From Chitinophagales bacterium (lineage in GTDB: Bacteria; Bacteroidota; Bacteroidia; Chitinophagales; UBA2359): 52,732 nt of DNA. The notes below the pieces were generated by a model. That model saw only the letters and a program-made list of their open reading frames with translations, did no database searches and had not been told where the DNA came from. Each line of letters begins with the position of its first letter. The stretch's first letter is position 1. Below are positions 171-41,886 of the stretch, piece by piece. A program made the translations under genes and the position numbers. The DNA is taken from NCBI GenBank assembly GCA_020629005.1, contig JAHDEE010000003.1, positions 1 through 52,732 on the forward strand, written 5' to 3'.

Positions 171-355
171 TTTGGAGCGAAAGGTCGATCGGCCGCTTAA
201 GCTGTAGTCCCGCTGTTCGTTCCAATTCAGGTAGCACTGCAGCGCTTCGTGTATCCACTGGCGTGGTCTCCTCCTAAGGTCGGAGCCCTCGCCAGTGGCA
301 CACTCTGTCGCTGCATTACTACCTTCATTTCCTCTTCCATCGGGGCTATTTTGAA
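171..355 (+). repeat. Dispersed structured 3' element, copy A
   Basis: One of five related elements in the window. It starts 34 bases after the CHAT stop codon with TTTGGAGCGAA and ends with CATCGGGGCTATTTT. Two nested self-complementary arms are visible: CCACTGGCG with CGCCAGTGG inside, and AGGTAG...GCAGCG with CGCTGCA...CTACCT outside, around a core that reads GTCTCCTCCTAAGGTCGGAGC. It fills most of the 300-base gap between the CHAT gene and the convergent T9SS gene. The strand given is the direction in which the upstream gene would transcribe it. Nothing else was recognised in the gap. Confidence 0.75.
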
Positions 356-440
356 GCGCCTCTCGTTCGCGACTAGTAGAGATGTATGTGATTTGGACGA
401 ATGGGATTGTAATAAATATCGTTGTCTCGAACTTAGTTTC

Positions 441-959
441 TTACCTTTTCAATACCCTACGAATCGATTTGCTTTTGCCTGCAGCAGTTTGCACTTCAAT
501 TAACAAGAGTCCGCGAGGTACACCTTCAAGACCTAATACAGCATTTTTGGCATTAGGAGATACGGAAATCTCCTGAATCATCCTGCCAAATGCGTCGTAT
601 AGCAGGATCTTAAGGGCGGAGCTCGATGGTTCCGAAAAGGATACAAGACAAAAGTCCTTGGCAGGATTTGGGTAAACCGCAACGGAGCCAAACACCTGAT
701 CTTTCGTTTGGACAGTGGTAAACTGAAGGTAGGGGTTCTGAAATCCCTGCTCTAGCCTGTATCCACCGCCAGCTATCTCCCCTGCAATTGCCTGCCCTAT
801 AGTGTATTGGATGCTGCCCATATTGGAGGCGGCGTTCCCGCTTAAAGAACTGATTACATCATTGCGGGTGTAAACAAGAGCAATCTGCTCTGATTTTTCC
901 TGCGCTTCGGCATCAAGTCCGAGCAGTAGGAGTAGCGTAATTATGATTAACTGTTTCAT
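441..959 (-). CDS. Small secreted protein with T9SS type A sorting domain (172 aa)
   Basis: Start chosen at the Met at 959 because it opens a clean signal peptide (MKQLIIITLLLLLGLDAEAQ) and removes an overlap with the upstream gene; a longer frame reaches 1049. The mature protein has a compact N-terminal domain with the YTIGQ...LEQGFQ pattern common in Bacteroidota surface cargo. A type A sorting domain follows, with YPNPAKD near its start and a basic end (RRVLKR). It should be exported by Sec and then carried to the surface by the T9SS. It lies 31 bases after the collagen-like gene at 991-2736 and is probably co-transcribed. Its paralogue at 5063-5581 is also exactly 172 residues and also follows a collagen-like gene. 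Function beyond surface display is unknown. Confidence 0.85.
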   Translation of the reverse strand: MKQLIIITLLLLLGLDAEAQEKSEQIALVYTRNDVISSLSGNAASNMGSIQYTIGQAIAGEIAGGGYRLEQGFQNPYLQFTTVQTKDQVFGSVAVYPNPAKDFCLVSFSEPSSSALKILLYDAFGRMIQEISVSPNAKNAVLGLEGVPRGLLLIEVQTAAGKSKSIRRVLKR

Positions 960-990
960 AGTTTCTGATTTTTTCTTAGTACAGACTGTC

Positions 991-2736
991 TCATTCATCA
1001 ATTGACTTAGCCAGTTGAATGAGTCGCGTTGTGAATTCCCTAAAAGCATTCAGGTTGTCTTCGGTGTTGGATTGTAATTCTGGCAACATCATTTTAAGAG
1101 CTTGAGCATCATCCGAAATTTGCGCCTGCTGCTCCGCAATTCCTCGCAAACCCTCGATTAGTATAGGGCAAAATTGTAGATAGTTGACTGCCTTAAGACC
1201 ATTTGACTTCGTCTCCACCAATTCCGGATATACTTCTTCAAGTTCCTGAGCGATCAAGCCCTTTTGCAGTGACTTGGCAAAGTTCATTTCAGGAAACTGC
1301 TCCCAGGCAAAGTGATAGCTGACACCCCTAAGCAAAAACAGTCGATCTAAAGAGACTTGCAGCTTTTGTATGTTCTTTTTATACCGTTCATCTGATGATA
1401 GCTGCACGCCGTTGGCGAACACATTTGCTGCATAAAGATCTCCTTGTACCTCAAGTCGTCCTGTGCTGCTTGGTCCGATACTACCAATACTTACCGAATT
1501 TGCGTCGATTACATAGACTAGCTGATCGTCTGCCGACAACTGTTTCTGCATTAGATTTTCGCCAGCTAGTTGGCCATCAGTCAAATAGTATTGGCCAGGC
1601 TCGCCTTGCTGGCCGCTACTGCCTTGCGGGCCTTGCTGACCCGCCTGACCAACAGGGCCATTGGGACCTTGTGGCCCATTGGGTCCTTGTGGACCGGCAT
1701 AGCCTTGTTCACCAGGAACCCCGGCCTCACCCATGGGGCCTGTAGGACCTGGAATTTCACTCTGACAATCCAGAGGTGTGAAAAGACTATCTGAATTTGT
1801 ATCCTCTTCCGGATCATTTGCCCCGTTTGCATTGCTGTCCCAGCACCAGTAGCTAATATCTACCTGCTCCCCATCCGGACCTATAGGTCCAATACTGCCG
1901 GTGGGTCCAACTGCGCCTCTTAGCCCATTTTGTCCTTGTATACCCGTAGGTCCCCATGGGCCGTTTGGCCCCTGATTTCCCGGTGGGCCCATTTCTCCGG
2001 GTTCATAGTTTGCAGGGCCTGCCAGACCGCTGCTGGTTTCCTGTGAACGACAATCCAACACATTATAAAGGCCATCATTATTGACATCTTCTTCGATATC
2101 GTTGACTCCGTTAATTATTGTGTCCCAGCAGTTAATACCGATGGCCACCAAAGTACCTGTTGGTCCTTGTGGTCCTGGATTTCCAGGAGGGCCAGGAGGG
2201 CCAGTCGGTCCAGTCAGACCCACAGGCCCATCTTCGCCCATCGGACCCATAGGCCCTGTAGGCATATCCAGACCATCTACTCCAGGAGGGCCCGGTGGAC
2301 CTGGCGGACCTATTGGACCCAGGTACTTTGATAGATTTGCCTCTTCGGTGTATAGTGCATAGGGAACTGAAAGAGGTGTAATTTGCCCGTAATCTTCATA
2401 GGTTCCATCACCATTTGTGTCGAGACTTACGTGGAAACTAATTTGCCCAGTTGACCAAAGGATGTCCGTAAACTGTCCAAAATTTACTGAGCCAGTTCCA
2501 AGCACAATGTTCACTACTCCAGTTGCATTGGAGACCAGACTATGGGCCTCTCCGTAATATACTTCTAAATTGGTGTGGTTCTCTGCAGTTACTTCCACTT
2601 CAATCGGGCTGTTGGCTATCGGTAGGCCTTCTGTATCGAGTACCACCAGCTGAAGATATATACCTTCTGGTGATTGTGCCAGAGCCAGTGTAAAAGCCAA
2701 CAGTAGGCTACTAATCGTTGATGCTATCTTGTTCAT
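991..2736 (-). CDS. Collagen-like protein with C-terminal S74 chaperone domain (type 2 N-terminus)
   Basis: 581 residues. Signal peptide about 1-20. A beta-rich N-terminal domain spans about 21-137. Gly-X-Y collagen tracts at about 140-195, 240-290 and 330-382 are separated by two CWD...DC cassettes with Asp/Asn-rich, calcium-loop-like spacing. The C-terminal peptidase_S74 (endosialidase-type intramolecular chaperone) domain begins at [11 protein letters not shown], near residue 446. It keeps the Ser-Asp-x-x-x-Lys arrangement that forms the self-cleavage dyad in characterised members (here about S448 and K453), and [13 protein letters not shown] follows. The last 50 residues look like a coiled coil. 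There is no T9SS sorting domain. Its N-terminal domain resembles the frameshifted gene at 7381-9140 and differs from the other four collagen-like proteins. Likely role: a trimeric surface or periplasmic fibre. Confidence 0.85.
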
Positions 2737-2812
2737 TTTATTAAAATTGTATGTGTTTAATTTGTGGAGGTGTGTTGTTCAGTTGGTATTACTTCATTTG
2801 CACCTTCCTGTT

Positions 2813-4525
2813 TCACTCTTTGGAATTATGCAAAGCAGATTGCTCCTCAAGTAGCGCTATCATTTTGGCCACCTTTGCCTTCTCTCTCTGCAGCTTCTCG
2901 TTCATACTTAGGAGTGAGACTATCCTTGAGTTTGAAGATTGTAATTCTTTTGACTGTAGGTCGATTTGCACTTGAAGCTCTTTAATGCCTTCTAGAAGCA
3001 TTGGAATCAGTCTGCTATAGTCCACTACTTTATAACCATTTGCCTTGGTACTGACCATGTCTGGAAAGATGGCTTCTACTTCCTGAGCAATCAAGCCGAT
3101 TTGCTGCTTGGATGAGAAGTTCATTTCCGGGAACTGCTCTGTCCTGAAGTCGTAACTGACAGGCTGGAGTTGAAGTAATTTTGGTAAGACTTCGTCTAAT
3201 TTCTGAATGTCCTTTTTATATCGAAGATCGGAGGATAAGAGGATGCTATTGGAATACACATCCATTGCATAAACATCTCCATCTATCTCCAATAGTCCAC
3301 CTGTATTTTGAGGTGCTCCTATCGAGACAGTCCCACCTGTATAGGCTATGTCATTGCCGCTTAACTGCCAATATCCGATAGCATCATCTCCTTTTGGTCC
3401 ATCGTCTCCGTCTTGACCCGCGGGACCGGCGGGACCTGTTGGACCTTGTGAACCTGGAGCTCCGTCCTGCCCGGCTGGGCCAGCAGGGCCGTGGTTTCCT
3501 TGAATGCCAGCTGGTCCCATTGGGCCTTGCCCTCCAGCTGGTCCTTGACAATCGAGCACATTCCATATGCCGTCTCCGTTTCGGTCTTCTGCTAGTTGAG
3601 CGTAGTAGTCTTGGTTTGTGTCCCAGCAATGAAGTGCGGCTTCTCCACCGAGAATGGACATCGAGGTACCTCTAGGTCCCGCTGGACCTTGCGGCCCGGC
3701 TGGACCGGCTGGGCCTGTTGCCCCCGTAGGGCCTTGTGGACCAGCTGGACCTTGATTGCCCGCTGGGCCATTAGGTCCCTGAGGTCCGTCTGGGCCTGCC
3801 GGACCGGCAGGACCTATTACTACACAGTCATATGCATTCCATAGCCCATCCTGATTCACATCCTCAGCAGCATCACGAAGGTAGTTTTGATTTAGGTCCC
3901 AACAATGAATTGCAGCTTCTCCTCCGAGCAAAGAAATAGACTCACCCTGCGGACCTACGGGGCCTTCCTCCCCTTGCGCTCCAGCAGGTCCTGATGGTCC
4001 GCTCGGTCCTGCAGCTCCTGGTGGCCCTTGTGGTCCAGGTTGCCCATTCATTCCATTTTGACCAGCTGGGCCTTGTGGTCCTGTCTGCCCCATGGGCCCT
4101 TCCGGTCCGATTTGAATTCCGCCAACATCGTTCGCATAAAACGCATAGGGTACGGATAGCAATTGTGCTGTTCCGACTGTGCTGAAGTTGGTACCAGCAT
4201 TTTCGTCAATCTCAATCATCAGGTAGTGAGCAGCTGATCCCCAATCGATAGCGCCGAAGCTTCCGATCGTTGGTGCTCCCAATCCAATGTTTAGGCTAAA
4301 CAGGCCATAGCTATCCGTTATGGCCATGTGTGTTTCCTGGTATTCGATTGGACCGGCAGCAGAGACGGAGAGAATGCTTGCCTGAATGGAAATGGTTGCG
4401 TCAGCCAGGAGGTAATCATTGCTATCATAGGCAACCGCTTGATAGTTGAACGCTTCTGGGGCTTGCGCAATACATGCGAGATGAAGTAAGCTGGTTAGTA
4501 AGGAGATTAGTGTAAATTGTTTCAT
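2813..4525 (-). CDS. Collagen-like protein with C-terminal S74 chaperone domain (type 1 N-terminus)
   Basis: 570 residues from the Met at 4525, which begins the signal peptide [21 protein letters not shown]; an upstream in-frame Met at 4579 adds a charged leader and is unlikely. The N-terminal domain (about 22-135) opens with [15 protein letters not shown] and ends near [12 protein letters not shown], a layout shared with the genes at 5616, 9156 and 23067. Three Gly-Pro-rich collagen tracts are split by two CWD...DC cassettes, each preceded by a short LLGGEAA or ILGGEAA linker. The S74 domain begins at [12 protein letters not shown] with the Ser-Lys pair at S432/K437. The end is a predicted coiled coil rich in Glu, Lys and Leu. 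It lies 76 bases upstream of the type 2 gene at 991-2736, so co-transcription is likely. Confidence 0.85.
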
Positions 4526-4779
4526 TTTATGTGTGTTTAAAGTAAAATGCAAAAAAAATGTCGTTTTAAATCTTTGCAAGACATAGTGGGAATTCGATGA
4601 ATTTGTTTAATGCTAAGTTAGGTCAGCTGAGCCTCGCAACTAAAGCAAGTTTAAGTGCAAGATTTTGCCTTAGTTCTGACTGGTATGGTGTTAAGGTATT
4701 GGTAATCAGTATGTTGCGGTTTGGGTCTGTGGGTTTTGGCTTTTGTTTAGCCATGTTTGCGCGATGGAGCGAGGGTGCA

Positions 4780-4956
4780 GAATAGCCCCGGGCGCAGTGG
4801 TATGGCCTATGCAGAGGCCGTGGTGACTGCCAGCTGATGGGGGCTCGGAGCCTGCGGAGAGACCACAGCAGCTGAGCAGGAACAGGCAGCTGCGTAGGCC
4901 ATACAAACGGAGCACGGGACAGGTGTTTCTGCGGCCGTCCTGGCTTCGCTCCAAAT
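4780..4956 (-). repeat. Dispersed structured 3' element, copy B
   Basis: Read on the minus strand it starts TTTGGAGCGAAG about 107 bases after the stop of the 5063-5581 gene and ends GCCCGGGGCTATT. The outer arms GTATGGCCTACGCAG and CTGCATAGGCCATAC pair over 14 of 15 positions. The core GTCTCTCCGCAGGCTCCGAGCC is shared with copy E. The element occupies the middle of the 537-base gap 4526-5062. The rest of that gap holds A/T-rich sequence upstream of the 2813-4525 gene, in which no convincing -7 box was found, and no other gene. Confidence 0.75.
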
Positions 4957-5062
4957 AAAATTGAATGAAGGAATGTGAAAGAGGGCTATTTGTGCGTTGG
5001 TGAGGTCTCTTGGCTGTAAATTTAGTGGAGCGCAACAGGTAGGCACGTAGAAGCGGGCTACG

Positions 5063-5581
5063 TCAATCAGATATTTTGACGATCTTGTATTGGGCTAGCA
5101 ATTGTGATTTTTGGTTCAGGAGGCTAAGAATGTAAGTGCCGCGAACATAGGATTCCAGATTGATTATCATTCTATCTATTCCTGTCGCCATACGCTGTTC
5201 ACTCAATTGTTGTCCGTTGATCGCAGTGAGCCTGAGATACAGCGGCTCCTCAATTGGCTCGTTCAATTGCATGATGCAAAAGTCGGTCCCTGGATTAGGG
5301 TATAGTTTCAGTTCCGTTCTCAGTCCTAAACCGTGTTCCATCAGGGAGGTTATAATGTTGGGCTGTTGGAATCCTTGCTGTAAGCTGTATTCGCTGCCTG
5401 TCATGGCGCCCACAACCGGTTGCCCAATTGTGTAGTTGATAAAAGAGTTTCTAGTGGATGCGGTGCTGCTTTTGGGGCTTACAATTTCATGCTTTGTATA
5501 AACAACAGTTACTTGGTCTTCCTGCGCATAGCAGATGCAGCCCAAAAGTAGAGTTGTAATAGATATAAGTATGTGACGCAT
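5063..5581 (-). CDS. Small secreted protein with T9SS type A sorting domain (172 aa), paralogue of 441-959
   Basis: Start placed at the Met at 5581, giving the signal peptide MRHILISITTLLLGCICYAQ; the longer frame to 5638 overlaps the preceding gene. The N-terminal domain has the INYTIGQPVVGAM...LQQGFQQPN pattern also seen in the 441-959 protein. It is followed by a type A sorting domain with LYPNPGTDFC and ending in KIVKISD. The length (172 residues) is identical to that paralogue, and both follow a collagen-like/S74 gene at 31-34 bases. It should be a T9SS-exported surface protein. Genes of this kind usually lie next to the secreted structure they serve, but no partner can be shown from sequence alone. 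Confidence 0.85.
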   Translation of the reverse strand: MRHILISITTLLLGCICYAQEDQVTVVYTKHEIVSPKSSTASTRNSFINYTIGQPVVGAMTGSEYSLQQGFQQPNIITSLMEHGLGLRTELKLYPNPGTDFCIMQLNEPIEEPLYLRLTAINGQQLSEQRMATGIDRMIINLESYVRGTYILSLLNQKSQLLAQYKIVKISD

Positions 5582-5615
5582 AATATGTAATTTGTATGGG
5601 ATTTGCTGGCCTGGT

Positions 5616-7331
5616 CTAATGTTCAGTTGTTTGTTCAAAGATTCGTTCGATTGCTCGAATTTGTGTTTCCAGATCCCTGTTCTCTCTTTCGAGATCTTCT
5701 TTTACCGATTGCAGTTCCACATTTGTATTCGTGATGTCTTTCAAGCTAGTTTGCTGGTTTTCGACGGAATGATTTAGTTCCTTTACCGCCTGGATCAGCA
5801 AAGGGATTAACTGTGCATAATCCACAGATTTATATCCATCATCGTGCGTAACAACCATATCCGGCAATACCTCTTCAAGCTCTTGAGCGATTAGTCCTAT
5901 TTGCTGCTTGTTCGTGAAATGTTTGTTGGGGAATGCCTTGCAGTTAAAGTTGTATGTAAATGCATTTATGGAATGTATTATGGGTAGTGCTGGCGGCAGT
6001 GGTTTGATGTCCTTCTTGTATCGAAAGTCAGAACTCAGCAGTAAGCCACTTGCGTAGATATCTGCTGCATGGACATCGCCGCCGACTTCTAGCATAGCGA
6101 AAGAATTTTGAGGGTTTCCAATGGCAACCGTGCCGCCGGTGTATGTAATATTGTTGTTTTCTAGTTGCTGCCAATAGCCAAGTGCGTCATCTCCTTTGGG
6201 GCCTGGATTTCCTGGTAAACCGGCAATGCCTTGTGGGCCTAACTGTCCAGTGGGGCCGATTAGACCGGGATCACCCTGAGGGCCCTGTGGGCCTACAGAA
6301 CCCAGATAGCCAGAGGGGCCGACACTTCCTGCTGGACCCTGCGGTCCTCGACAGTCCAGGCGATTCCAAAATCCGTCATTATTTTGGTCTTCGGCCTCTT
6401 GTGCTAATTGATCTCCATTTAGATCCCAACAATGAATTGCTGCTTGACCGCTGAGATCAGCAAATGGGCTACCTTGTGGTCCTTGCGGTCCTGCAGGGCC
6501 TGCCGGTCCCATTGGTCCGTTTACACCGCTTGGACCGGGTGGCCCTTGATCACCTGCGAAACCTGGGGGACCATTGATTCCTTGGGGACCCTCTTGCCCT
6601 GAGGGGCCTTGTTCACCCCGGAAAATGCAATCGAGCGTATTCCAAACTCCGTCTTCATTGATGTCTTCCTGTTCATCGGCCTCGAAGTTTTCGTTTTGAT
6701 CCCAACAGTGCAGGGCAGGAACATTGTTGAGTAGTACGATGGTTTCGCCTGGTGGTCCAGGCTCACCTGTCAAACCTGATGGACCACTTGGTCCTGTTGG
6801 GCCTGCGAATCCTACTGGTCCCGTCTCGCCACCAGGTCCAGTAGGTCCGAATGCGCCGTCAGGTCCAGCCGGTCCCGTTGGTCCTTCAATACCTGGTGGG
6901 CCTGTAATTCCCGCTTGGGAATTTGCTATTCCGTTTGCATAGAGTGCATAGGGCACTGTTAGCAATTGTGCGGTACCAATGCTGGTAAAATTGGTGCCTG
7001 CGTCTTCGTCTATTGCTATTCTTAAGTAGTGGGCGGCAAAGCCCCAATCGATCTCTTGAAATGTGCCATCAGTCACAGTGCCTTGACCGATGTTGACTTC
7101 GAATAGGCCAAAGTTATCGGTAATTGCAATATGTGTTTCTGTATAAATTTCTTCGCCAGTTGGACTGTTTGCTACTATGCCTGCCCTGATGGAAATCGTA
7201 GCGTCCGAAAGGGTGTTGTTATTGCTGTCATAGGCAACGGCTTGGTAGTTGAACGATTGTGGAGTCTGGGCTTTGGTATCAACCACCTGAAGGCTAAGTA
7301 TGGTTAGGAATAGAAATAGGTAACGAGTCAT
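5616..7331 (-). CDS. Collagen-like protein with C-terminal S74 chaperone domain (type 1 N-terminus)
   Basis: 571 residues. Signal peptide about 1-21 (MTRYLFLFLTILSLQVVDTKA). The type 1 N-terminal domain begins [15 protein letters not shown] and ends LLTVPYALYANGI. Collagen tracts alternate with two CWD...DC cassettes (CWDQNENFEADEQED and CWDLNGDQLAQEAED); in the second the first loop has lost most Asp/Gly positions. The S74 domain starts LLSSDFRYKKDI and keeps the Ser-Asp-x-x-x-Lys pair, followed by [13 protein letters not shown]. The final 60 residues (ELNHSVENQQTSLKDI onward) are a predicted coiled coil. It is followed after 34 bases by the 172-residue T9SS cargo gene. Probably a trimeric fibre subunit that self-processes at the S74 Ser; cleavage itself is not shown here. 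Confidence 0.85.
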   Translation of the reverse strand: MTRYLFLFLTILSLQVVDTKAQTPQSFNYQAVAYDSNNNTLSDATISIRAGIVANSPTGEEIYTETHIAITDNFGLFEVNIGQGTVTDGTFQEIDWGFAAHYLRIAIDEDAGTNFTSIGTAQLLTVPYALYANGIANSQAGITGPPGIEGPTGPAGPDGAFGPTGPGGETGPVGFAGPTGPSGPSGLTGEPGPPGETIVLLNNVPALHCWDQNENFEADEQEDINEDGVWNTLDCIFRGEQGPSGQEGPQGINGPPGFAGDQGPPGPSGVNGPMGPAGPAGPQGPQGSPFADLSGQAAIHCWDLNGDQLAQEAEDQNNDGFWNRLDCRGPQGPAGSVGPSGYLGSVGPQGPQGDPGLIGPTGQLGPQGIAGLPGNPGPKGDDALGYWQQLENNNITYTGGTVAIGNPQNSFAMLEVGGDVHAADIYASGLLLSSDFRYKKDIKPLPPALPIIHSINAFTYNFNCKAFPNKHFTNKQQIGLIAQELEEVLPDMVVTHDDGYKSVDYAQLIPLLIQAVKELNHSVENQQTSLKDITNTNVELQSVKEDLERENRDLETQIRAIERIFEQTTEH

Positions 7332-7380
7332 TGTTGCTAAGATTAAGGATTAGAAAATGGAGTTGGTGGTGTAATGAATA

Positions 7381-9140
7381 TTAGTGCAGCTTATGCAGCT
7401 CACTTGCCACCAAACTCATCCTTCGTAGTCGCTCTGAGAGTTCTGTGTAGGAGGAAAGATCTTCCATTTCCTTCTTATGCCGGGCTTCGGTATCTGCCAT
7501 ATGCTTATCGATGAGGTCTTGTTGTAGTTCTATATCGAGATCGAGATTTTTGAGACCTTCTAAAAGTACAGGGCCGAATTGTAGATAGTTGACTGCCAAA
7601 AAGCCATCGGATTTTCGTACGACCAACTGCGGAAAGCTATCCCTTAGGTTTTGTGCAATCAGTCCCGTTTGTTGTGCTTTTGGAAATTGCATTTCCGGGA
7701 AGTTTTGCTGGTCAAAGAAGTAGTGTACTCCTTGAATTTGCTGCAAGGCTTTAGCTTCGACTTTGAGTCTTTTGAGGTTGGTCTTGTACCGCCGGTCTGA
7801 AGAAAGTGGCGCATCGTTGGCAAATACGATAGTAGCGTAAATGTCTCCGGCCACATTCAACAATCCAGGTGGGTTTTCCGATACTTCTCCTATGTTAACT
7901 TTAGTTGCATTGATTTGATAGTAGAGACGATTGTTGTTTACCAGTACTTTCTGCATTTGATTTTCGCCTGCAAGCTCACCGTCGGCATTGAAGTATTGGC
8001 CCTTCTCACCCTTTTCACCTTCATCTCCTTTGAAACCTTGAAAGCCTTGGTTTCCATCCGGTCCTGCAGGTCCTATTTCTCCTGCTGGCCCTTGTGGGCC
8101 TTGAGGTCCCTGAGCTCCTGCTGGGCCTCTTGGACCCACTAATCCAGCCGGACCTACAATTGTGGTCTGGCAATCGCGGGCATCGAATGTTGCGTCTCCA
8201 TTGATATCCTCTGTGGGGTCATTTGTTCCGTTGTTGTTGCTATCCCAGCACCAGTAGCTTTGGTTGACGATTTCACCTGAAGGCCCTTCAGGTCCTTCAG
8301 CGCCTTCTACACCTTCCAGACCCTGAGGACCTGAGGCACCTGTAGGTCCGGGAAGTCCCTGACTGCCTTGTGGTCCTCTTTCACCATTATAACCAGGGAT
8401 CGACTGATCTTGTCCTGATGGTCTGTAAGGTCGTTTCCGGTTTCTAAAGCAACACAGTCCTGTACATCTACAAGTCCATCATCATTAAGATCTTCTTCCT
8501 GATCAGGGACTCCGTTAATAATGAAATCCCAGCAGTAATAGCTCATTGGATAAAATTGGCTGGAGGGACCTTGCGGACCAGGATTTCCATTAGGCCCTGT
8601 TTGCCCGCTGGGGCCAACAGGGCCTGGATTTCCTTGTGGACCAGGTGTCCCCTGCGGGCCTGATTGTCCGTTTTCGCCTGGAGGGCCTGCAGGTCCTGAC
8701 TCTCCAGGAGGCCCCTGGGGTCCAACAAATTGATCTGCGGCAGTTTGGCCAGCAAAGAATGCGTAAGGAACTGATAGTGGTACGATGGTTCCAAAATCCT
8801 CCAGGAGGCCGTCTCCGTTTGTGTCCATTTGCAGATAGAAAACGATCTTACCTGTGTGCCAGGCAATGTTGGAAAATTGTCCTAAGGTTACTTCTCCTTC
8901 TCCAATCACAAGGTTGAGCACTCCGTTTTGATTTGTGGTGCCTGTTTGGGTTTCTTGATAATATACCTCCAGCGTCTCCTGGTTCTGGACGGTAAGCAAA
9001 ACTTCGATTGGATTATTGTCTAGCACATAGCCCTCCGGGTGAAAGGCAACTACCTGAAAATTGATGCCTGGCGGTACCTGAGCCAGGCAGATGATTAGGC
9101 TGAAGAATAAATATAATATTGTTGCTTGTAAACGCTTCAC
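7381..9140 (-). pseudogene. Frameshifted collagen-like/S74 protein (type 2 N-terminus)
   Basis: Two adjacent frames make one interrupted gene. 9140-8307 encodes a signal peptide, the type 2 N-terminal domain ([15 protein letters not shown]), one collagen tract and the first CWD...DC cassette. It then loses the Gly-X-Y frame near 8422 and stops. The Gly-X-Y frame continues in another register ([16 protein letters not shown]), through a second cassette (YWCWDSNNNGTNDPTED), more collagen and the S74 domain (PLSSDRRYKTNL) to 7381. One extra base near 8422 would restore an unbroken product of about 586 residues, close to the 581 of its paralogue at 991-2736. The start codon is GTG. Either a real inactivating deletion, a recoding or phase-variable site, or a sequencing error. 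Confidence 0.8.
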
Positions 9141-9155
9141 GGTCTTTCTTTTTGG

Positions 9156-10874
9156 TTAATGCTTTGCCTGCTTCGAATTCAGAACTTGCTCTAGTGCCTC
9201 AATTCTGCGTTCTATTTTCTTTCGTTCCTCATTCAGTCTTAGTACTTCATTACCTATGGAAATTGATTTGGCCTGCTCTGTCTCAAGTCTCTCGCTTTGG
9301 AGCTGGTGCACCGTCTGTAGTTCCTTTAGGGACTCCAGAAGTACAGGAAGAAGCTTCGTATAATCGACCATCTTGTATCCATCTTTTCTGGTCACCACTA
9401 TCTCTGGAAAGACTTGTTCAGTCTCTTGTGCGATCAAGCCCATTTGCGATTGAGCAGGAAACTTCATGTCCGGAAATTGCACAGCTCTGAATTTGTAGCT
9501 GACTGGTCGAAGCTGTAATAGTTTCTCTAGAGCATTTTGGATTGGCAAAATGTCTTTCTTATAGTTCCTGTCAGAAGAAAGCGGTATTCCATTCGAATAG
9601 ACATCTCGTGCATATATTGCACCATCCACTTCGAGTAATCCATCCGTTCCCAAAGTATCGCCGATTGAAACCTTGCCTTCTGCGTACGAGATCGTGTTAT
9701 CAGACAAGCTCCAGAATCCCAAGGCATCAGTTCCGGCGGGGCCTTGTATGCCCGTTTCGCCTTTTGGTCCCCTGCTTCCGTTAAAACCTTGATTACCTGC
9801 TGGGCCTTGTGCGCCTTGTGGTCCTGTTGCGCCTACTGGCCCATTGGATCCTGCAGGACCCTGTGCCCCTCTTGGTCCCATTGGTCCAATACAATCATTG
9901 GCATTCCATATTCCGTCATTGTTGATGTCTTCAGAATCCTGGGCATAAAAGTCTCCGTTGAGATCCCAACACTGCATTGCTGCTTCGCCACCCAGAATTG
10001 ACCTTGAGGCTCCTCTTGGCCCCGCAGCACCTGCTGGGCCGGCTGGGCCTGTAGGGCCAACATTTCCAGTAGGGCCACTCGTTCCAGCAATACCAGCAAT
10101 TCCTTGTGGACCTATTGCTCCTATTGGTCCCACACCTCCTTCTGAGCCAGATGGTCCCGGAATCTCGCAATCCAAGGCATTCCAAAATCCATCTTGATTA
10201 GTATCCTCCTCGTGATCTCGCTCGAAGTTTGTATTGAGGTCCCAGCATTGAGTTGCAAGTTCTCCTGCCAGAAGAGAAAGAGGGTCGCCTGCAGCTCCTG
10301 CAGGACCATCAGCTCCTGGAGCCCCGTCAGCTCCCTGAGGGCCAGCAGGACCATTGGGGCCGGCTTGGCCATTTACACCTTGTGGTCCATTGGGACCAGC
10401 CTGACCAGGAGGGCCAATTGGTCCTTCTGGTCCCTGTGGGCCTTCGGCTCCCAACTGCAACTCATCTATGTTTGCTGTGGCTGCGTAAAAGGCATATGGG
10501 ACAGACAGGAGTTGTGATGTTGCGAGTTCCTGGAAATTTGTTCCGGCATTTTCATCAATTGCGATCTGCAGATATTGAGCAGCATTTCCCCAGTCAATAT
10601 CTGAGAAAGATCCAAGTGCAGGACTTCCCTGGCCGATGTTGAGATCGAATAATCCAAAATTGTCTGTAATTGTAATATGCGTTTCCTGATAGACCGGATC
10701 TCCCTCCTCCGAACCTGAGAATATACTGACCTGTATGGAGATAGTTTCATTTGTCAAGACTATATCTTGATTGTCAAACGCCACGGCTTGATAGCTGAAG
10801 GCTTGTGGAACTTGTGCATCGACATAGCTGAGCCAAGCTAGCATTAGTAATAAAGTATAAGTTAGGTGTTTCAT
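9156..10874 (-). CDS. Collagen-like protein with C-terminal S74 chaperone domain (type 1 N-terminus)
   Basis: 572 residues. Signal peptide MKHLTYTLLLMLAWLSYVDAQ. The type 1 N-terminal domain begins [16 protein letters not shown] and ends [12 protein letters not shown]. Three collagen tracts are split by two cassettes (CWDLNTNFERDHEED and CWDLNGDFYAQDSED). Each is preceded by the LLAGE or ILGGEAA linker also found in the 2813-4525 protein, so these two are close paralogues. The S74 domain starts PLSSDRNYKKDI with the Ser-Lys spacing intact and GLIAQETEQVFPE downstream. The tail (LQSERLETEQAKSISIGNE onward) is a predicted coiled coil. It is the first gene of the array in transcription order, 15 bases before the frameshifted type 2 gene. 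Confidence 0.85.
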   Translation of the reverse strand: MKHLTYTLLLMLAWLSYVDAQVPQAFSYQAVAFDNQDIVLTNETISIQVSIFSGSEEGDPVYQETHITITDNFGLFDLNIGQGSPALGSFSDIDWGNAAQYLQIAIDENAGTNFQELATSQLLSVPYAFYAATANIDELQLGAEGPQGPEGPIGPPGQAGPNGPQGVNGQAGPNGPAGPQGADGAPGADGPAGAAGDPLSLLAGELATQCWDLNTNFERDHEEDTNQDGFWNALDCEIPGPSGSEGGVGPIGAIGPQGIAGIAGTSGPTGNVGPTGPAGPAGAAGPRGASRSILGGEAAMQCWDLNGDFYAQDSEDINNDGIWNANDCIGPMGPRGAQGPAGSNGPVGATGPQGAQGPAGNQGFNGSRGPKGETGIQGPAGTDALGFWSLSDNTISYAEGKVSIGDTLGTDGLLEVDGAIYARDVYSNGIPLSSDRNYKKDILPIQNALEKLLQLRPVSYKFRAVQFPDMKFPAQSQMGLIAQETEQVFPEIVVTRKDGYKMVDYTKLLPVLLESLKELQTVHQLQSERLETEQAKSISIGNEVLRLNEERKKIERRIEALEQVLNSKQAKH

Positions 10875-10977
10875 AGTATTTCATTACCGGTCTGAAAATA
10901 TTAACCATTTGATCGGCGATGGCTGTACAGAGTAATATAAGGATACTTTCGCATGCTAATACAATGATTGTTGAGAA

Positions 10978-20628: not shown

Positions 20629-22221
20629 ATGAGTGATAAGTTGGAGAACCGAAAATTCTTGAGTCTGCTATCGTGTTTGGAGATGAAAGAAATTAAGGAG
20701 TTTAAGGCTTTTCTAAAATCAGCTTCACCGCCTGTTGAAGATCAAAAGCAGGGAGTTCAGTTATTAGCGGCCACCATCAAAGAAGCCAAAAAGCAAAAGG
20801 ATGATTTCGGAGTCTCTTATCTGGTTTTTCCAGCCGGGACCAGCGAGAAGCTTGCAAGCAAGTTATACGGCCACACCAGTGATCAGGGTAGAAATGCTTT
20901 AGGCCAGCACTTTAGCTATTTGCGTAGAGCTTTGCAACGATTTGTGGCGGAGCGCAGCGCTGCATCTGAGATCATGGACATTGTCCCAACAGACTTTATT
21001 GGGGAGCTTCGATACTTAGAATTTTTGCAAAAGCGTGGACAAAGCAGCTTCTTCAGGAGCCACCTAAAGAATTTAAAAGAGAGACTTGACAATGAAAAGC
21101 GCTCTGAACATTTACTGCGTGTGCTAAGCCTCACGGAGCAGTTGGAGATAAAGCAGCGTATCAAGGATGACACCAAATTAAAGTCGGTGTCTTGCACCCA
21201 GTTGCGGGATTACACCGAGAAAGCCAATTTGCTCTCTTCCCTAAAGCTTCATTGCACGATGGCAAGTCTGGAGATTAGCAGGGCAGTTAATCGGTGTTCA
21301 GGGAAAGAAACTCACCCGCAAGGAAGTATATCAGAAGGCCCGCAGAGCAAGGCAGACTATTGGCAAGGGCAGGTCAAGTTGTATGAACAGGAAGTGCTTA
21401 TCCAGCTGTGGTATGGCGTTTATATGGCCTATGCAGATGAGCGATCTTTGGCGCATTACGATTCGCTGATCTCTTTGGTAGAGCAGCACCATGAGAGCAT
21501 CGCAGATGAGGAATTACTGGGTATCACCCAGGCTGTGGAAGGACTCTGCCTTGAGCGAACGAGAAATCAGGATGATCAGGAGTGGCGTGAACTGCTTCTT
21601 CGAATTTACAAGCAATTGCATAAATCACAATTGTTGGTTCCTGGTAAGTCAATTTCTATTCGTTCATTTGTAAATAAAATAAATGAATATGCAAAGGCAA
21701 AGAATATTGAATGGGGCCATGAATTCATAGAACAGTATTCTCCCAAACTACCTGGTAATTCCCGCGACAAGATTGTTGGTGTGGGAGAAGCCATTTTACT
21801 GTTCGAGGACGGCAAATTTGAAATGGCGATAGATAGACTAAATGTGCCCGACCTCCTATACGAGTTGGATCACAAGCTAGAGAATAATCGCATCATACTG
21901 CTATTTAAATCTTTCTACGAAGCCAACAAACTCGATCATCTTCAGCATCAATTGGATCGCCGGCTTGCTTCCTTTGCGCGCACAACCAAGCTGGTCCCAG
22001 GATATGTAAAGCCTAGCAAATTGTTTCTTCAGGCACTCAGGAAGCTAACTAAACTGCGGGTCGATTTGGACAGGAACAAGAGGGATCCTAAAGCCGTGCT
22101 TGCGTCTATTAATAAGCAGAGGTCTTTGATTCTTGAGGCTGAAAAAATTGATAACCAAAAGTGGTTATTAGAGAAAGTCGAAATCTTCGAAGCAAGATTT
22201 ATTGAAGAACACAGTTTATAA
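20629..22221 (+). CDS. Uncharacterised Bacteroidota protein, predicted all-helical (530 aa)
   Basis: Start chosen at the Met at 20629 (MSDKLENRKFLSLLSCLEM). The upstream 36 codons have a Trp/Phe/Val composition unlike the rest. There is no signal peptide or membrane segment, so it is probably cytoplasmic. The N-terminus (LLSCLEMKEIKEFKAFLKSASPP) resembles a group of Bacteroidota proteins with a LxxLxxxExKxFxxFLxSP start, which I recall only as hypothetical proteins. The body is rich in Leu, Glu, Lys and Arg with repeating helical periodicity, possibly helical-repeat. No enzymatic motif was found. The structured element copy C begins right after its stop codon. Divergent from the protease genes, so not obviously in an operon. 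Confidence 0.7.
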   Translation: MSDKLENRKFLSLLSCLEMKEIKEFKAFLKSASPPVEDQKQGVQLLAATIKEAKKQKDDFGVSYLVFPAGTSEKLASKLYGHTSDQGRNALGQHFSYLRRALQRFVAERSAASEIMDIVPTDFIGELRYLEFLQKRGQSSFFRSHLKNLKERLDNEKRSEHLLRVLSLTEQLEIKQRIKDDTKLKSVSCTQLRDYTEKANLLSSLKLHCTMASLEISRAVNRCSGKETHPQGSISEGPQSKADYWQGQVKLYEQEVLIQLWYGVYMAYADERSLAHYDSLISLVEQHHESIADEELLGITQAVEGLCLERTRNQDDQEWRELLLRIYKQLHKSQLLVPGKSISIRSFVNKINEYAKAKNIEWGHEFIEQYSPKLPGNSRDKIVGVGEAILLFEDGKFEMAIDRLNVPDLLYELDHKLENNRIILLFKSFYEANKLDHLQHQLDRRLASFARTTKLVPGYVKPSKLFLQALRKLTKLRVDLDRNKRDPKAVLASINKQRSLILEAEKIDNQKWLLEKVEIFEARFIEEHSL

Positions 22222-22405
22222 TTTTGGAGCGATACTAATCCCTTCGCTTTGATTGCAGTCCCGCTGTCCGTTCCAATGTGGGTACCATCCAGCCGGTGTC
22301 TGCATCTGCCACCGAGGTCTCTCCGGCAAGCTCCGAGCCCTCGTTGGCAGCGCAGCCACTCGCCTGGCTGGCACCCCCATTTCCTCTTCCATCGGGGCTA
22401 TTTTG
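22222..22405 (+). repeat. Dispersed structured 3' element, copy C
   Basis: Begins TTTTGGAGCGA directly after the stop codon at 22221 and ends CCATCGGGGCTATTTT. The inner arms CTGCCACCGAG and CTCGTTGGCAG pair over 10 of 11 positions; the outer arms GGGTACCATCCAGCC and GGCTGGCACCCCC pair imperfectly. The core reads GTCTCTCCGGCAAGCTCCGAGC. The last part, CCCCAT...ATCGGGG followed by CTATTTT, could act as an intrinsic terminator in this copy. This is the first part of the 845-base gap 22222-23066, which contains no gene. Confidence 0.8.
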
Positions 22406-22417
22406 AAGCTGTGGTCT

Positions 22418-22515
22418 CACGTGGAGGGAGCAAGGAGTAAAGAGCAAAGAGCCAAGAGCAAAAAGAAAGGAGAAAAGAGTAAAAAGTAAAGAGTAAAGAG
22501 TAAAAAGTAGGAGTA
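22418..22515. repeat. Purine-rich low-complexity tract (GAGTAAA/GAGCAAA units)
   Basis: About 100 bases of degenerate 7-base units such as GAGTAAA, GAGCAAA and GAGTAAAAA, directly beyond element C. It produces long open frames of repetitive Leu/Phe/Ser on the minus strand that are not genes. It looks like slippage-generated simple sequence. Confidence 0.7.
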
Positions 22516-22849
22516 AAACTGCTGAGGTCAGGTGAGTAAAAACCCAATTTGGAGTCCTCAAGGGTCGCTGAGCCAGAGTGAGTAAAAACTATTTCGCCTG
22601 CCAGAAAAAGGACTTTGCTCATACTAATGTAGTAGCCAATGACGGTCCTTGAGCGGAGTCGAAAGGCCCGTTGAAGACGGACCAGGAAGAACAATATCTT
22701 CATTGCGCAAAGCCTTCATTACCAGCTCCTGGTCCGCCAATCTCATGGCGAGGACAAAGAAATGGGGCACGGTGTGCTCCGGCATCAACTAGTCAAGCAA
22801 GTCTCAATTGGGGGGCTTTCTTTGGTGGCGCGGAGGGAACAGGTGGCAG

Positions 22850-23021
22850 AATAGCCCTGATAGCAATGGAAATGGAGCTGCTATACAGGAACTGAGCGCC
22901 CAGTAGCTGTGGCTGCCTAAAGCAGACGCAGATACTGGTGCAGCGAAGTCCTGTATAGTAGCTCCATTGGAATGGATAGCAGGCAGTGCCTTTTACGCGT
23001 AGGAATGGGCCTCGCTCCAAA
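22850..23021 (-). repeat. Dispersed structured 3' element, copy D (core replaced)
   Basis: Read on the minus strand it begins ATTTGGAGCGAGG about 46 bases after the stop of the 23067-25259 gene and ends ATCAGGGCTATTCTG. The outer arms AATGGAGCTACTATACAGGA and TCCTGTATAGCAGCTCCATT pair over 19 of 20 positions, the longest arm of the five copies. The inner CTCTCCGCAGGCTCCGAGC core is missing; unrelated sequence fills the tip. It lies in the same convergent gap as copy C, in the opposite orientation. Confidence 0.7.
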
Positions 23022-23066: not shown

Positions 23067-25259
23067 TTAGTCGTTTTGCAAGTGAAGTTTTAGGTCTTCA
23101 ATTGCTTTTCTGTTTTGCTCAATCTCCGTTTTGAGACTAGTGTTTAGAGAAACGTTTTCTTGCTCGGCCTTGAGAAGTTTTTCGTTGAGCTCTTTTATAG
23201 CTTCCACTAACACCGGAACTAGTTTGGCGTATTCGACTGCTTTGTAGCCATCTGCCTTTGTAAGGACCAGTTCGGGCAGAATTTGCTCAAGTTCTTGTGC
23301 AAGGAATCCGACTTGTTCGGCTTCAGAGAATTTCCTTTCTGGAAACTTTTTGGTATCAAATTTATAGGTGACCCCTCGGATGGCCATCACTATCTCCAAT
23401 GCATTGCTTAAGGATTCGATATCTTTTTTGTAGCGGGCATCTGATGTCAACGCAACACCATTTGAGCATACGCTTCCGCTGACGTCCAGAGCGCATTGCG
23501 GATTGTTGTTCCCAATGCCTACATCTCCAAGGTAGTAAATTTGGTTGGCACCTGTATCCATCCAAGGGGTGATGCCTTGTGGGCCGAGCGGCCCAGCCGG
23601 ACCCTGACAATCTAATACATTTGTTTGGCCGTCTCCGTTCACATCTTCGGAAGGGTCTGATGCCCCATTCTCGTTGAGGTCCCAGCAGTTCAATCCAATG
23701 GGTCCTGCGGGTCCGAATGGTCCTTGTGGTCCTGCTGGTCCCGATTGTCCAGCCGGTCCAGCCGGTCCTGCGGGTCCCGCTGGTCCTGGTGGTCCTTCCG
23801 GCCCCGCAGGGCCAGCTGGTCCTGCTGGACCGGCACTTCCATCTTCTCCCGAAGGGCCTGCCAAGCCTGCTGCTCCCTGGCAATCGTTTACGTCCCAGAC
23901 ATTATCTCCGTTTACATCTTCAAAATCGTCTTGAGTACCATCCTGATTGAGATCCCAGCAAAAAAGAGAAACTTCAAAACTGCCTTGTGGCTGGCAGTCT
24001 TCCGCACTCCAAATTCCATTGTTATTTTGATCCTCGGACGGATCGTTTACGCCATCACCATTAGTATCCCAGCAGTTGATTCCAACACCTGGAGGTCCTT
24101 GTGGTCCGGCAGGTCCAGCCGCCCCTTGTGGTCCGACGCTTCCAGCCGGCCCTTGAGCCCCCATGTTTCCAGCCGGCCCTTGAGGCCCCATGTTTCCAGC
24201 CGGCCCTTGAGGCCCCATACTACCAGGCAATCCAGGAGGTCCCTGTGGACCTTCGGGGCCCGCAGGTCCGGCAGGGCCAATGGCTCCATCTTGTCCGTCT
24301 GTGCCGGGTGGACCTTGTATCCCAACTTCACCCTGGGCGCCAAGCAGTCCTTGTGGACCCTGGCAATCGAGTACATTTATATCTCCGTCCCCATTGCTGT
24401 CTTCTTCGGGGTCATTTATGCCATTTTGATTGGTATCCCAACAGTGTAGTCCGTTTCCTGTTCCTGTGCCAGGGGGACCCTGTGGTCCTGGTTCTCCTTG
24501 TGGTCCCTGCGGACCCATTTCTCCCGGAGGTCCCTGGATTCCCTGCGGTCCGTCATTTCCTTGCGGTCCTTGTTCACCTATTTCACCTGGGGGGCCTGGC
24601 ACGCCTGCAGGCCCTGGAAGTCCCTGGCAATCTGCCGTAGTAAAAAGCGAGTCTCCGTTGATGTCTTCTTCGGGATCATTCAGCCCGTTTTCGTTGGTAT
24701 CCCAGCAGTGTGTTCCATTCTCACCACCAGATGGTCCTGGTGGTCCTTCAGGGCCTTCTGGTCCAGGCAAACCGTCTGCTCCTGCAGGACCCACTGGGCC
24801 GATTGGACCGACAGCTCCGGGTGGGCCTTGTGGTCCGGCTGGGCCGGCAATTCCACCGCCAGCGCTTTTCGAATAGAGTGCGTAGGGAACGCTCAGCAAC
24901 TCTGCAGTGCCGAGGATTTGGAAGTCAGAACCGCCGTTTGGGTCCAATTCAATTTGTATATGATGGCTACTGTTTTCCCAGGCCAAACTTGAGAAGTCGC
25001 CTTGCACTACAGTTCCTCGACCAATCTGTAGGTTGTATAATCCGATAAAATTCGTATTGACAAGGTGATCTTCGATATAGACGATTTCACCGGCGATTCC
25101 GTCAATGAGGATATTGACCCTTACGGCTATTTCCGTGTTACTAATAGGGCTGCCATCGATTTGGTTTGCAACAGCCTGATAGCTAAATGCCTCCGGGGCC
25201 TGCGCGTTTGTTAGTATGCTGTAAAATAGCAGCAAAAACAAAAAGATCAGTTTCTTCAT
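23067..25259 (-). CDS. Largest collagen-like protein with C-terminal S74 chaperone domain (five cassettes)
   Basis: 730 residues. Signal peptide [20 protein letters not shown]. The type 1 N-terminal domain begins [16 protein letters not shown] and ends [13 protein letters not shown]. Six collagen tracts are separated by five CWD...DC cassettes, which here keep the best calcium-loop-like spacing (for example [15 protein letters not shown] then NGD). One tract contains a recent 27-bp tandem repeat. The S74 domain starts [12 protein letters not shown] with Ser-Asp-x-x-x-Lys, then [13 protein letters not shown]. The C-terminal 60 residues are a predicted coiled coil ([19 protein letters not shown]). 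It stands apart from the main array, beyond the two proteases and the 20629 gene. Element D follows its stop codon. Confidence 0.88.
24141..24220 (-). repeat. Three 27-bp tandem repeats inside a collagen tract
   Basis: Three nearly identical 27-base units starting TCCAGCCGGCCCTTGAG at 24141, 24168 and 24195 encode repeated GPAGNMGPQ-type triplets. Near identity at synonymous sites shows recent expansion of the Gly-X-Y tract; 27 bases is three triplets, so the frame is kept. Confidence 0.85.
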
Positions 25260-31393: not shown

Positions 31394-31615
31394 TGGGTTT
31401 CTTTAAAGTGTTTTGGCTGTGGCAACCACAATTATACTTAGCTATCCTCTTCTTCGCATGCTGATTAAGAAAATTGGCGGGGAAATGAGCAATTGCGAAG
31501 GTCCTTCAAAACGAAAGGCGAAGTTACAGAAATCGCATCAAAATTGAGACATTTAGTGGAATTTGAAATGGCTCATAATTGAATTACAGGAAAATAGGTT
31601 AATTTTCAACTCTTA

Positions 31616-32635: not shown

Positions 32636-32637
32636 TC

Positions 32638-34752: not shown

Positions 34753-34788
34753 AAAGGAAAGCAGCCCGGGACACTGTTTGCCGTGAAG

Positions 34789-35613: not shown

Positions 35614-35774
35614 CAGATGATTTCTTCTAAAGTAGCAAGCAGATGGGCTTTTTTCAAATTGATGCAGCATGTGACAGAAAAAGGATCAGACTAAGTCTCA
35701 AGCAAGACGTTCCCCAATGCTGAAGCCAAGGTAAAACTAATATATTGGCCAAGCATAAAAAAATGTAATTGGCT

Positions 35775-35782
35775 TATATTTG
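35775..35782 (+). promoter_or_regulatory. Candidate -7 box (TATATTTG) for the PKD adhesin
   Basis: TATATTTG fits TAnnTTTG and lies about 78 bases before the start of the 35861 gene. The nearest suitable TTG upstream is at 35745-35747, a 27-base spacing, longer than typical. Confidence 0.45.
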
Positions 35783-35860
35783 TAGCTGTGCCTAAAAGGG
35801 CCTTACCTTAGGGGGCTATGACTGGTATTTATTGATCTGCTTCGGCTGCTAAATCCTACT

Positions 35861-40225: not shown

Positions 40226-40248
40226 TGAAGACAATATTTGTTTTAGTA

Positions 40249-41544
40249 CTATTTATCCGGTTTTGCACTGATCAAGGCATGACCAATTTGGCAGTTTAGA
40301 CATTTCTTCTTATCGCAGTATTGCTTCTTTAGATGAAGTAATGCCTGACTGTCAGCAGCGGTTTTCGGTTCTAGTCCCAATCGTCTCCATTCGTCGACTA
40401 TACTGTTTTGCTCGGGAGGTAAAGATTGTAAGAGATCAAGCGCCTGCTCCTTAAGCTCCAAATTATTTTGTAAACTGGCCCATGCAAACTGCAATGGGCA
40501 AATTGCATTGATCAACAGAAGTCTGGTGAAACTTTTGCTGAGCTTTTTCACTTTAGGCTGGTGGCTACTCTTGAAGGAATAGTGGGTATTCCAATACTCT
40601 GGAAGCTGAAGTGCCAGAAACTGCTGTGCATCCGCCGAGGAGCGTATCTCCTTAATGTCTGAGAAGAGGTGTTGTCGCGAAAAGAATAGTGCAGCGAGCT
40701 GTGCGAGTCGGATACTAGGGAAGCCTCCTGGTCGAAGGCCAAAAAACTTACAGCTCTTTTCTTTCAGCGGTTGAAGCTGATATTTTTTCGCCAGGTATTT
40801 GTATTCACGATGTAGGGATTCCAGATAATCATCGTTTTGGAAATAGAGGTCCAACATTCCGGAGTGTCCCAGCAATAGCGATTGTATCCGAAACGAATGT
40901 CCCAGGGACTGACTTATCGCGCGCTTTGGGAGACTGCTGATAATCCGCATAAACGTTTCTCCATTTATGGGCCCGCCGAAGGCTCTTGCTAAAAGCATGC
41001 GTGCACAGCTTTCCCAGTCATTTTTGCCTAGTAGTAGAATCTTTTTTACCTCAATAACCCTACTCTGCAACCTTTCTATGCACATGCGATCCAGGCACTG
41101 AATCTGTCTTATCTTAGGAACAGATTCTATCATCATCTCGCAGGGAATCCAACGCTGTGAAGATCGCAGATGCTGAAAATGCTCGTATACGTGCCGGGGA
41201 ATACGGCTTTTCAGCTCCAATGTAGGAATCACCTGTCCCAAATGGTCAAGGATCTCCCGATCCGCATTCAACACTACATGCAAAACAACATTGTGATAAG
41301 CGGAGTCATGTTGATGTCGGTGCAGTAACCAATCTGATGCTTTAACATGCAATTCCACATTACCCACCCAGATGGTTTTACCAATTCTTACTCTTCCGTT
41401 AAAGTAGTCTGGCCCGTCGCTAAGATTTTTCTTTCCAAATTGCAATATCTCAATGCGTTTCCCTTGAGTTGTTTGCAAATCCCTGAGATCGAACAATCCA
41501 TTTTGCCAAACATAATCTATGAAGTTCTCTGTAAACTGCAGCAT
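40249..41544 (-). CDS. DUF2851 family protein
   Basis: 431 residues. The N-terminal third carries the DUF2851 hallmarks: GKKNLSDGPDYFNGRVRIG, WVGNVELHVKASDW, and HRHQHDSAYHNVVLHVV. The C-terminus ends with the family's Cys cluster (QYCDKKKCLNCQIGHALI), which could bind a metal. DUF2851 proteins are widespread in Bacteroidota, are about this length, and have no established function. The DGPDF...GNVEIH segment looks enzyme-like, perhaps nuclease-like, but that is a guess. No signal peptide. It is convergent with the PKD adhesin (23 bases between stops) and is preceded by a simple-sequence tract and element E. Confidence 0.88.
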   Translation of the reverse strand: MLQFTENFIDYVWQNGLFDLRDLQTTQGKRIEILQFGKKNLSDGPDYFNGRVRIGKTIWVGNVELHVKASDWLLHRHQHDSAYHNVVLHVVLNADREILDHLGQVIPTLELKSRIPRHVYEHFQHLRSSQRWIPCEMMIESVPKIRQIQCLDRMCIERLQSRVIEVKKILLLGKNDWESCARMLLARAFGGPINGETFMRIISSLPKRAISQSLGHSFRIQSLLLGHSGMLDLYFQNDDYLESLHREYKYLAKKYQLQPLKEKSCKFFGLRPGGFPSIRLAQLAALFFSRQHLFSDIKEIRSSADAQQFLALQLPEYWNTHYSFKSSHQPKVKKLSKSFTRLLLINAICPLQFAWASLQNNLELKEQALDLLQSLPPEQNSIVDEWRRLGLEPKTAADSQALLHLKKQYCDKKKCLNCQIGHALISAKPDK

Positions 41545-41590
41545 GCTTTTTTACTATAGGAGTATTCAGTGCGTGCAATTCCACAAAATT

Positions 41591-41633
41591 GGTTTTTAGT
41601 TTTTAGTTTTTAGTTTTTGGTTTTTGGTTTTGG
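41591..41633. repeat. T-rich 7-base simple repeat (TTTTTAG / TTTTTGG)
   Basis: Three TTTTTAG units followed by TTTTTGG units lie between the DUF2851 start and element E. Like the tract next to element C, it adjoins the GGGGCTATTTT-like end of the element. It is slippage-prone sequence with no coding potential. Confidence 0.7.
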
Positions 41634-41706
41634 ATTAGAGTGTAGGTGTACGGGAAATCATTGGAAAGAGGGGGAGTGGGTTGGTTTGCGCGGTGGACTG
41701 GCGGTT

Positions 41707-41886
41707 CAAAATAGCCGTGGGCGAAGTGGAACGAGGCGCTTAGACAGCGTGGCGACTGCCGCTCTATAGTGGCTCGGAGCCTGCGGAGAGACACTATAGA
41801 GCGAGCAGGAGCAGCTGTATAAGTGCTGAGTATTAACGGAGCACGCGCAAGCCGATTGCGCGCTGGATAAAAGTCTCGCTCCTAAA
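41707..41886 (-). repeat. Dispersed structured 3' element, copy E
   Basis: Read on the minus strand it starts TAGGAGCGAGA about 20 bases after the stop of the CNNM gene and ends CCACGGCTATTTTGAACC. The inner arms CGCTCTATAGTG and CACTATAGAGCG are perfectly complementary over 12 bases around the core TCTCTCCGCAGGCTCCGAGC. The outer arms pair weakly. With the simple repeat at 41591-41633 it fills the 359-base gap between the DUF2851 and CNNM genes; no gene lies there. Confidence 0.8.

What the first reader, a model, noticed from the sequence alone, without database searches (positions are those of the whole stretch)
171..41886. A family of structured elements placed right after stop codons, always in the same orientation to the upstream gene
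Five copies (171-355, 4780-4956, 22222-22405, 22850-23021, 41707-41886) share a TTTGGAGCGA start and a GGGCTATT-type end. Four share the core GTCTC..CC..AGCTCCGAGC or a close variant. Read from the nearest upstream stop codon, all five begin with GGAGCGA, 5 to 110 bases after the stop. This polarity (5 of 5, on both strands) is hard to explain by random insertion. It suggests a transcribed 3'-UTR element that acts as a terminator, mRNA stabiliser or RNA-binding site, or a palindromic mobile repeat that targets gene ends. I do not recognise it as a named family.
Basis: partly seen in the sequence, partly recalled or inferred. Interest (0 to 1): 0.85.

Follow-up and report, generated by a model that had tools for sequence, protein, structure and literature searches.

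The report
Flavo-1-like hairpin repeats, inverted neighbours
The five window copies belong to roughly 400 scattered hairpin repeats in this genome, distant relatives of the Flavo-1 repeats of other Bacteroidetes; across the genome they show no fixed direction relative to genes, but copies lying close together usually point in opposite directions.

Summary
The five copies are real: members of a family of roughly 400 dispersed ~180-bp repeats, almost all intergenic. The reported polarity is not general. In two genomes of the genus, the gene beside the GGAGCGA end points toward the element in 84 of 152 cases, and the gene beside the other end in 77 of 131. So this is not a sense 3'-UTR element.

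Sixty-three copies from one genome define a single long hairpin; 33 of 37 pairs show compensatory double changes. That strand, and the end sequences, match Rfam Flavo-1 (RF01705), but below its cut-off; I treat the family as a long relative, not a member.

In genomes rich in Flavo-1, copies are present in one species and missing at the same gene junction in others, so the family turns over like dispersed DNA. The enzyme is unknown: all three Y1 transposase genes here lie near a copy, but copy-rich genomes without any exist.

Unexpected: consecutive copies within 6 kb are inverted relative to each other in 59 of 67 cases (three genomes); beyond 10 kb, 23 of 37. Best reading: a REP- or MITE-like non-autonomous DNA repeat; an RNA or insulator role is not excluded.

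The parts
171..356 (-). Copy E1.
   Evidence: model R1 140.5 bits; Flavo-1 34.8 bits at 202-351 minus; RNA fold z -5.65 of the complementary strand
4775..4955 (+). Copy E2
   Evidence: model R1 171 bits; no Rfam match
22223..22408 (-). Copy E3; starts one base after the stop codon of the gene 20629-22221
   Evidence: model R1 153.8 bits; Flavo-1 38.5 bits at 22253-22403 minus
22409..22843 (.). Spacer between E3 and E4, which face each other tail to tail (an inverted pair); low-complexity AGTAAAGAG-type repeats at about 22450-22520
   Evidence: sequence; pair list
22844..23021 (+). Copy E4
   Evidence: model R1 133.9 bits; Flavo-1 35.9 bits at 22849-22990 plus
41704..41885 (+). Copy E5, not used to build the model
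   Evidence: model R1 159.7 bits, E 4.9e-38; no Rfam match

Best explanation
A dispersed, non-autonomous DNA repeat of a Flavo-1-like superfamily of Bacteroidota. The unit runs from about CGCG..GGTGCAAAATAGCCCCG, through one long bulged hairpin, to GCGGGA..TTCGCTCCAAA(AAA), about 200 bp. Shown: high copy number, sharp ends with unrelated flanks, near-exclusive intergenic location, one hairpin with strand-biased wobbles kept by compensatory changes, no fixed orientation to genes, presence/absence of Flavo-1 relatives at orthologous sites, and inverted orientation of close neighbours. Inferred: it spreads (or spread) by an enzyme acting in trans on the single-stranded hairpin, as in REP or MITE-like elements, persists where genes are not broken, and is slowly lost. 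The inverted-neighbour pattern would come either from paired mobilisation or, more simply, from loss of close direct repeats by deletion.
For: 315 exact TTTGGAGCGA against 12 control; conservation stops sharply at both ends and flanks are unrelated; 9 of 102 copies overlap a called CDS by more than 30 bp; covariation 0.816 against 0.213 shuffled, 33 of 37 pairs changed on both sides; G.T against A.C cells 107:23 and 74:24 on strand-symmetrically chosen pairs; no orientation to genes; Flavo-1 loci present in G226 but absent at the same junction in G257, G259 or G261; near-identical copies (93-97%) in G001 point to recent duplication; inverted neighbours 59:8 within 6 kb; in F. psychrophilum Flavo-1 hits lie in sense or antisense of transcripts alike and many in none (PMC9723704).
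Against: No mover identified: Y1 transposases do not co-occur significantly with Flavo-1 (13/16 against 11/17 genomes, p 0.44), and G001, G006, G017 and G041 have many elements and no detected Y1 gene, though most of these are incomplete drafts. No empty site was shown for the long form itself, only for its Flavo-1 relatives; absence there could also be loss. Strong compensatory change over long times suggests continuing selection on the structure. Some sites are shared by several species.
Confidence: 0.6

Rival explanations
1. Functional RNA: a transcribed structured element (small RNA, mRNA stabiliser or protein-binding site) read on the Flavo-1 strand, as Rfam types Flavo-1.
For: Strand-biased wobbles, strong covariation, stable fold, Rfam typing as Gene; sRNA.
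Against: No consistent gene context on either strand; presence/absence at orthologous sites for Flavo-1; hundreds of diverged copies; F. psychrophilum transcription data give no consistent strand (PMC9723704); most pairs almost strictly Watson-Crick.
Confidence: 0.2
2. REP element mobilised by a Y1 (RAYT, TnpA-REP) transposase, probably subclass 2.6 or 1.2.
For: All three Y1 genes of this genome have a copy within about 0.9 kb; subclass 2.6 genes of Bacteroidetes are described as flanked by atypical secondary structures with copies elsewhere in the genome (PMC6006769); some Y1 loci of G004 and G020 also have a copy within the fetched flank.
Against: Other Y1 loci of G004 and G020 have none; subclass 2.6 loci in 18 other fetched pieces show no Flavo-1 match; no significant co-occurrence; G140 and G194 have about 20 or more Flavo-1 matches and no detected Y1 gene.
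Confidence: 0.2
3. Chromosome-organising or transcription-insulating boundary element that works in inverted pairs.
For: Inverted neighbours; near contig starts 20 of 22 copies have the tail toward the contig end, so assembly-breaking DNA tends to lie on the tail side.
Against: The effect fades beyond 10 kb; segments between heads and between tails do not differ in gene conservation or clearly in strand make-up; no binding protein known.
Confidence: 0.08
4. Transcription terminator or 3'-UTR element of the gene on the GGAGCGA side.
For: Five of five in the window; mild preference for gene 3' ends.
Against: No polarity in 159 copies; no terminator-like site within the three scanned copies; the T-run before GGAGCGA is as long when the neighbour gene points away.
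Confidence: 0.05

Closest known systems
Flavo-1 RNA motif (Rfam RF01705; Weinberg 2010, PMC2864571)
   Same: Same strand, full-length model match in three of five copies, the same base-of-stem and AGCGG strands, a GCTCC end, high copy number, intergenic, Bacteroidota.
   Different: Matches at 34.8-38.5 bits lie below the 42-bit cut-off and two copies do not match; the hairpin is about 75 nt longer, the sequence more G+C-rich, and conserved bulges continue up the stem.
REP elements and BIMEs with RAYT transposases (PMC2817692, PMC6006769)
   Same: High-copy extragenic hairpins; alternating orientation of neighbours; possible Y1 transposase link.
   Different: About 180-200 bp rather than the 20-40 bp given for REPs (PMC3733652 abstract); neighbours are inverted over kilobases rather than in tight clusters; Y1 link not supported by co-occurrence.
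Integron attC sites
   Same: Strand-specific long bulged hairpins of similar size, often near a stop codon (general knowledge).
   Different: No RYYYAAC/GTTRRRY core-site pair (0 of 63); neighbours inverted, not in a same-direction array.
MITEs
   Same: Small non-autonomous dispersed units with sharp ends.
   Different: Ends (CAAAATAGCC and TTCGCTCCAAA) are not terminal inverted repeats of each other; no parent transposon found.

Membership tests
Flavo-1 (RF01705) | bit score at or above the curated cut-off of 42 | tested here: not met
   best 38.5 bits; three of five copies match at E 1e-4 to 1e-3, two do not; no match in the genome-wide search at E 0.001
Flavo-1 (RF01705) | consensus strand, base stem and AGCGG strands aligned over the whole model | tested here: met
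   model positions 1-76 of 76 aligned in three copies
Flavo-1 (RF01705) | expression of the folded strand as RNA | not testable with these tools
   no RNA-seq of this organism; F. psychrophilum data give no consistent strand for Flavo-1 (PMC9723704)
REP element | high copy number and extragenic location | tested here: met
REP element | short palindrome of 20-40 bp | tested here: not met
   about 180-200 bp conserved
REP element | cognate RAYT/Y1 transposase flanked by copies | tested here: inconclusive
   3 of 3 near in this genome, mixed in G004 and G020, no significant co-occurrence
Integron attC site | RYYYAAC and GTTRRRY core sites at the hairpin base | tested here: not met
   0 of 63 copies
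Intrinsic terminator | short G+C-rich hairpin followed directly by a T tract, in sense to a gene | tested here: not met
   no site within the copies scanned (three of five copies), no orientation bias
MITE | terminal inverted repeats and target-site duplication | tested here: not met
   the two conserved ends are not reverse complements of each other; target-site duplication not tested

The most novel reading that the evidence does not exclude
Flavo-1 and its longer relatives are one superfamily of single-stranded-DNA hairpin elements moved by a still unknown enzyme, with a rule that close neighbours lie inverted over kilobases, and not RNA genes as catalogued.
Probability: 0.3. Interest if true: 0.75.

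Novelty: new variant of a known kind. Interest (0 to 1): 0.5.

Why it matters
Flavo-1 was described in 2010 as a candidate RNA, and I found no function for it in the papers read here. These data offer a testable account of it and its longer relatives as turning-over DNA repeats. One genome alone supplies enough diverged copies to define the structure and the strand. The inverted-neighbour pattern is unexplained, simple to test in complete genomes, and would bear on how dense repeats shape chromosomes.

Tried and rejected
Terminator or 3'-UTR reading: orientation counts and terminator scans negative. Insertion after terminator T-tracts: the T-run before GGAGCGA is as long when the neighbour gene points away. 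attC: no core sites. Y1 transposase as sole mover: no significant co-occurrence. Replication-strand bias: GC skew along the element strand weak, 56 of 96 and 31 of 55 positive. Neighbours as copies of one another: within-pair identity of tail-facing pairs equals random pairs, head-facing pairs slightly higher, p about 0.06-0.07. Head side core, tail side accessory: no difference in conservation. Operon bracketing: strand switches not clearly different between interval types. Synteny with the same-genus genome G001: too few shared loci (45 reciprocal best hits) for a clean empty site of the long form. Tip motif in the named-genome collection: no match.

Full report
Observation. Four end-motif pairs at up to one mismatch per motif occur in the window, against 0.07 on average in simulated windows. 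The motif TTTGGAGCGA occurs 315 times in the 6.9-Mb draft genome and its reversed control 12 times. Judging from the sampled pieces, roughly three quarters of copies carry the exact motif, so I estimate about 400 copies; this is my arithmetic, not a count.

Anatomy. I used 61 pieces of the genome (844 kb: the window). The pieces were chosen around motif hits, without regard to gene direction. Copies are about 57% identical on average, at most 87%, yet nearly constant in length. Conservation stops sharply at both ends of a stretch of about 200 bp and flanks are unrelated, so this is a dispersed unit and not part of larger duplications. Sixty-three copies fold as one long bulged hairpin: 95.9% of cells paired, 33 of 37 pairs with compensatory changes on both sides, covariation 0.816 against 0.213 in shuffles and at most 0.145 when the partner is slid. 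The structure was derived from these sequences, which flatters it in the slide control, and the copies are related, which flatters it in the shuffles; the size of the effect is well beyond both. E5, left out of the model, was found at E 5e-38.

Which strand folds. Choosing pairs by Watson-Crick covariation alone, which treats both strands alike, the strand starting CAAAATAGCC and ending TTCGCTCCAAA carries 107 G.T cells, and the other strand 23; in the second genome 74 and 24. Cells are not independent and the wobbles sit in a few places (columns 34-37 with 129-132 and 71 with 97 of the alignment); other pairs are nearly strictly Watson-Crick. The inferred active strand is therefore the reverse of the one in the finding. 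Near-absence of wobbles elsewhere fits DNA better than RNA; this is inference.

Relatives. Rfam matches three of five copies to Flavo-1 over its full length on that same strand, E 1e-4 to 1e-3, below the cut-off. Flavo-1 copies of the complete genome G226 share TAGCCCCG, the two AGCGG strands, GCGGGA and a following GCTCC. A model of the long form finds related elements of about 100-185 nt in 14 of 61 genomes including this one. A shorter cousin of about 130 nt with the same hairpin tip occurs in both genomes of the genus.

Orientation to genes. With a simple hexamer-trained gene caller of my own (572 and 386 genes, 85-87% coding), the GGAGCGA-side gene points toward the element in 52/97 and 32/55 cases, the other side in 51/84 and 26/47. 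There is no polarity. Elements mildly prefer gene 3' ends on either side. The T-run before GGAGCGA is the same whichever way the neighbour points, and only about 10% have a terminator hairpin there.

Orientation to each other. Consecutive copies are mostly inverted: within 6 kb 32:4 in this genome, 14:2 in G001 and 13:2 in G020; pooled 59:8, p 1e-10; 6-10 kb 19:4; beyond 10 kb 23:14, p 0.19. I noticed this while looking at the data, so the p value is for a pattern found after the fact, although G020 was fetched afterwards as a check. Copies near contig ends are biased (20 of 22 near contig starts have the tail outward); dropping those within 600 bp of contig ends leaves 55:11 at all distances in the two genomes of the genus. 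The distance dependence suggests either removal of close direct repeats by deletion or paired movement; neither is shown. E3 and E4 in the window are such a pair, tail to tail.

Turnover. Five Flavo-1 loci of G226 were compared with relatives. At B2, G226 has the element and another inverted repeat between two genes, while G257 has 26 bp between the stop codon and the next ATG, and G259 lacks the element. At B3, G261 and G259 have much shorter junctions without it. At B1 it is in G259 but not in G261. B4 and B5 are shared by several species. So sites come and go, and some are old. This was shown for Flavo-1, not for the long form.

The mover. All three Y1 genes here have a copy within about 0.9 kb, and subclass 2.6 Y1 genes of Bacteroidetes are reported with atypical repeated hairpins (PMC6006769). 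But elements are plentiful where no Y1 gene is detected, subclass 2.6 genes elsewhere show no Flavo-1 match, and co-occurrence is not significant. The mover remains unknown.

Verdict. A long Flavo-1-like dispersed hairpin repeat, most likely non-autonomous mobile DNA. The claimed gene polarity is a small-sample effect. The inverted-neighbour pattern is the surprising part.

Noticed in passing
L046:5007-5137, L198:1599-1732 and ten further loci: A shorter (~130 nt) hairpin family with the same tip as the long form (GGGCTCGGAGC..GCGGAGAGACC) but other ends (GAGGGATAG..AGCGGATAGCCCGACC). One copy sits between orthologous genes in both genomes of the genus. Its end motif occurs in named Flavobacterium, Pedobacter, Labilibaculum, Gillisia, and also Fibrobacterales and Delongbacteria records.
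   Followed up: partly
G020 genome: Thirty matches to subclass 2.6 Y1 transposase, many of them broken fragments, suggesting past expansion and decay of the gene in an element-rich genome.
   Followed up: no
L240, L242, L248, L252, L255 near their first bases: Five of 19 contig starts next to an element tail share GACAAAAAGATAAGCTCC..GGTGTCAC..ACTTTGTTTACGCAGCACTAG, probably another repeat family that breaks the assembly.
   Followed up: no
L285 upstream of its Flavo-1 copy; G226, G257, G259, G261: A second, unrelated inverted repeat (GTCATTTCGACGAAGGAGAAATCTCC) occurs many times in these genomes and sits beside two of the five Flavo-1 copies examined.
   Followed up: no
window 441-10874 and 23067-25259: A run of minus-strand genes with long collagen-like Gly-X-Y type DNA repeats (CCTTGTGGTCC..), seen in the repeat search.
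   Followed up: no
window 22450-22520 and 41597-41640: Low-complexity tandem repeats (AGTAAAGAG.. and TTTTTAG..) lie on the tail side of copies E3 and E5.
   Followed up: no
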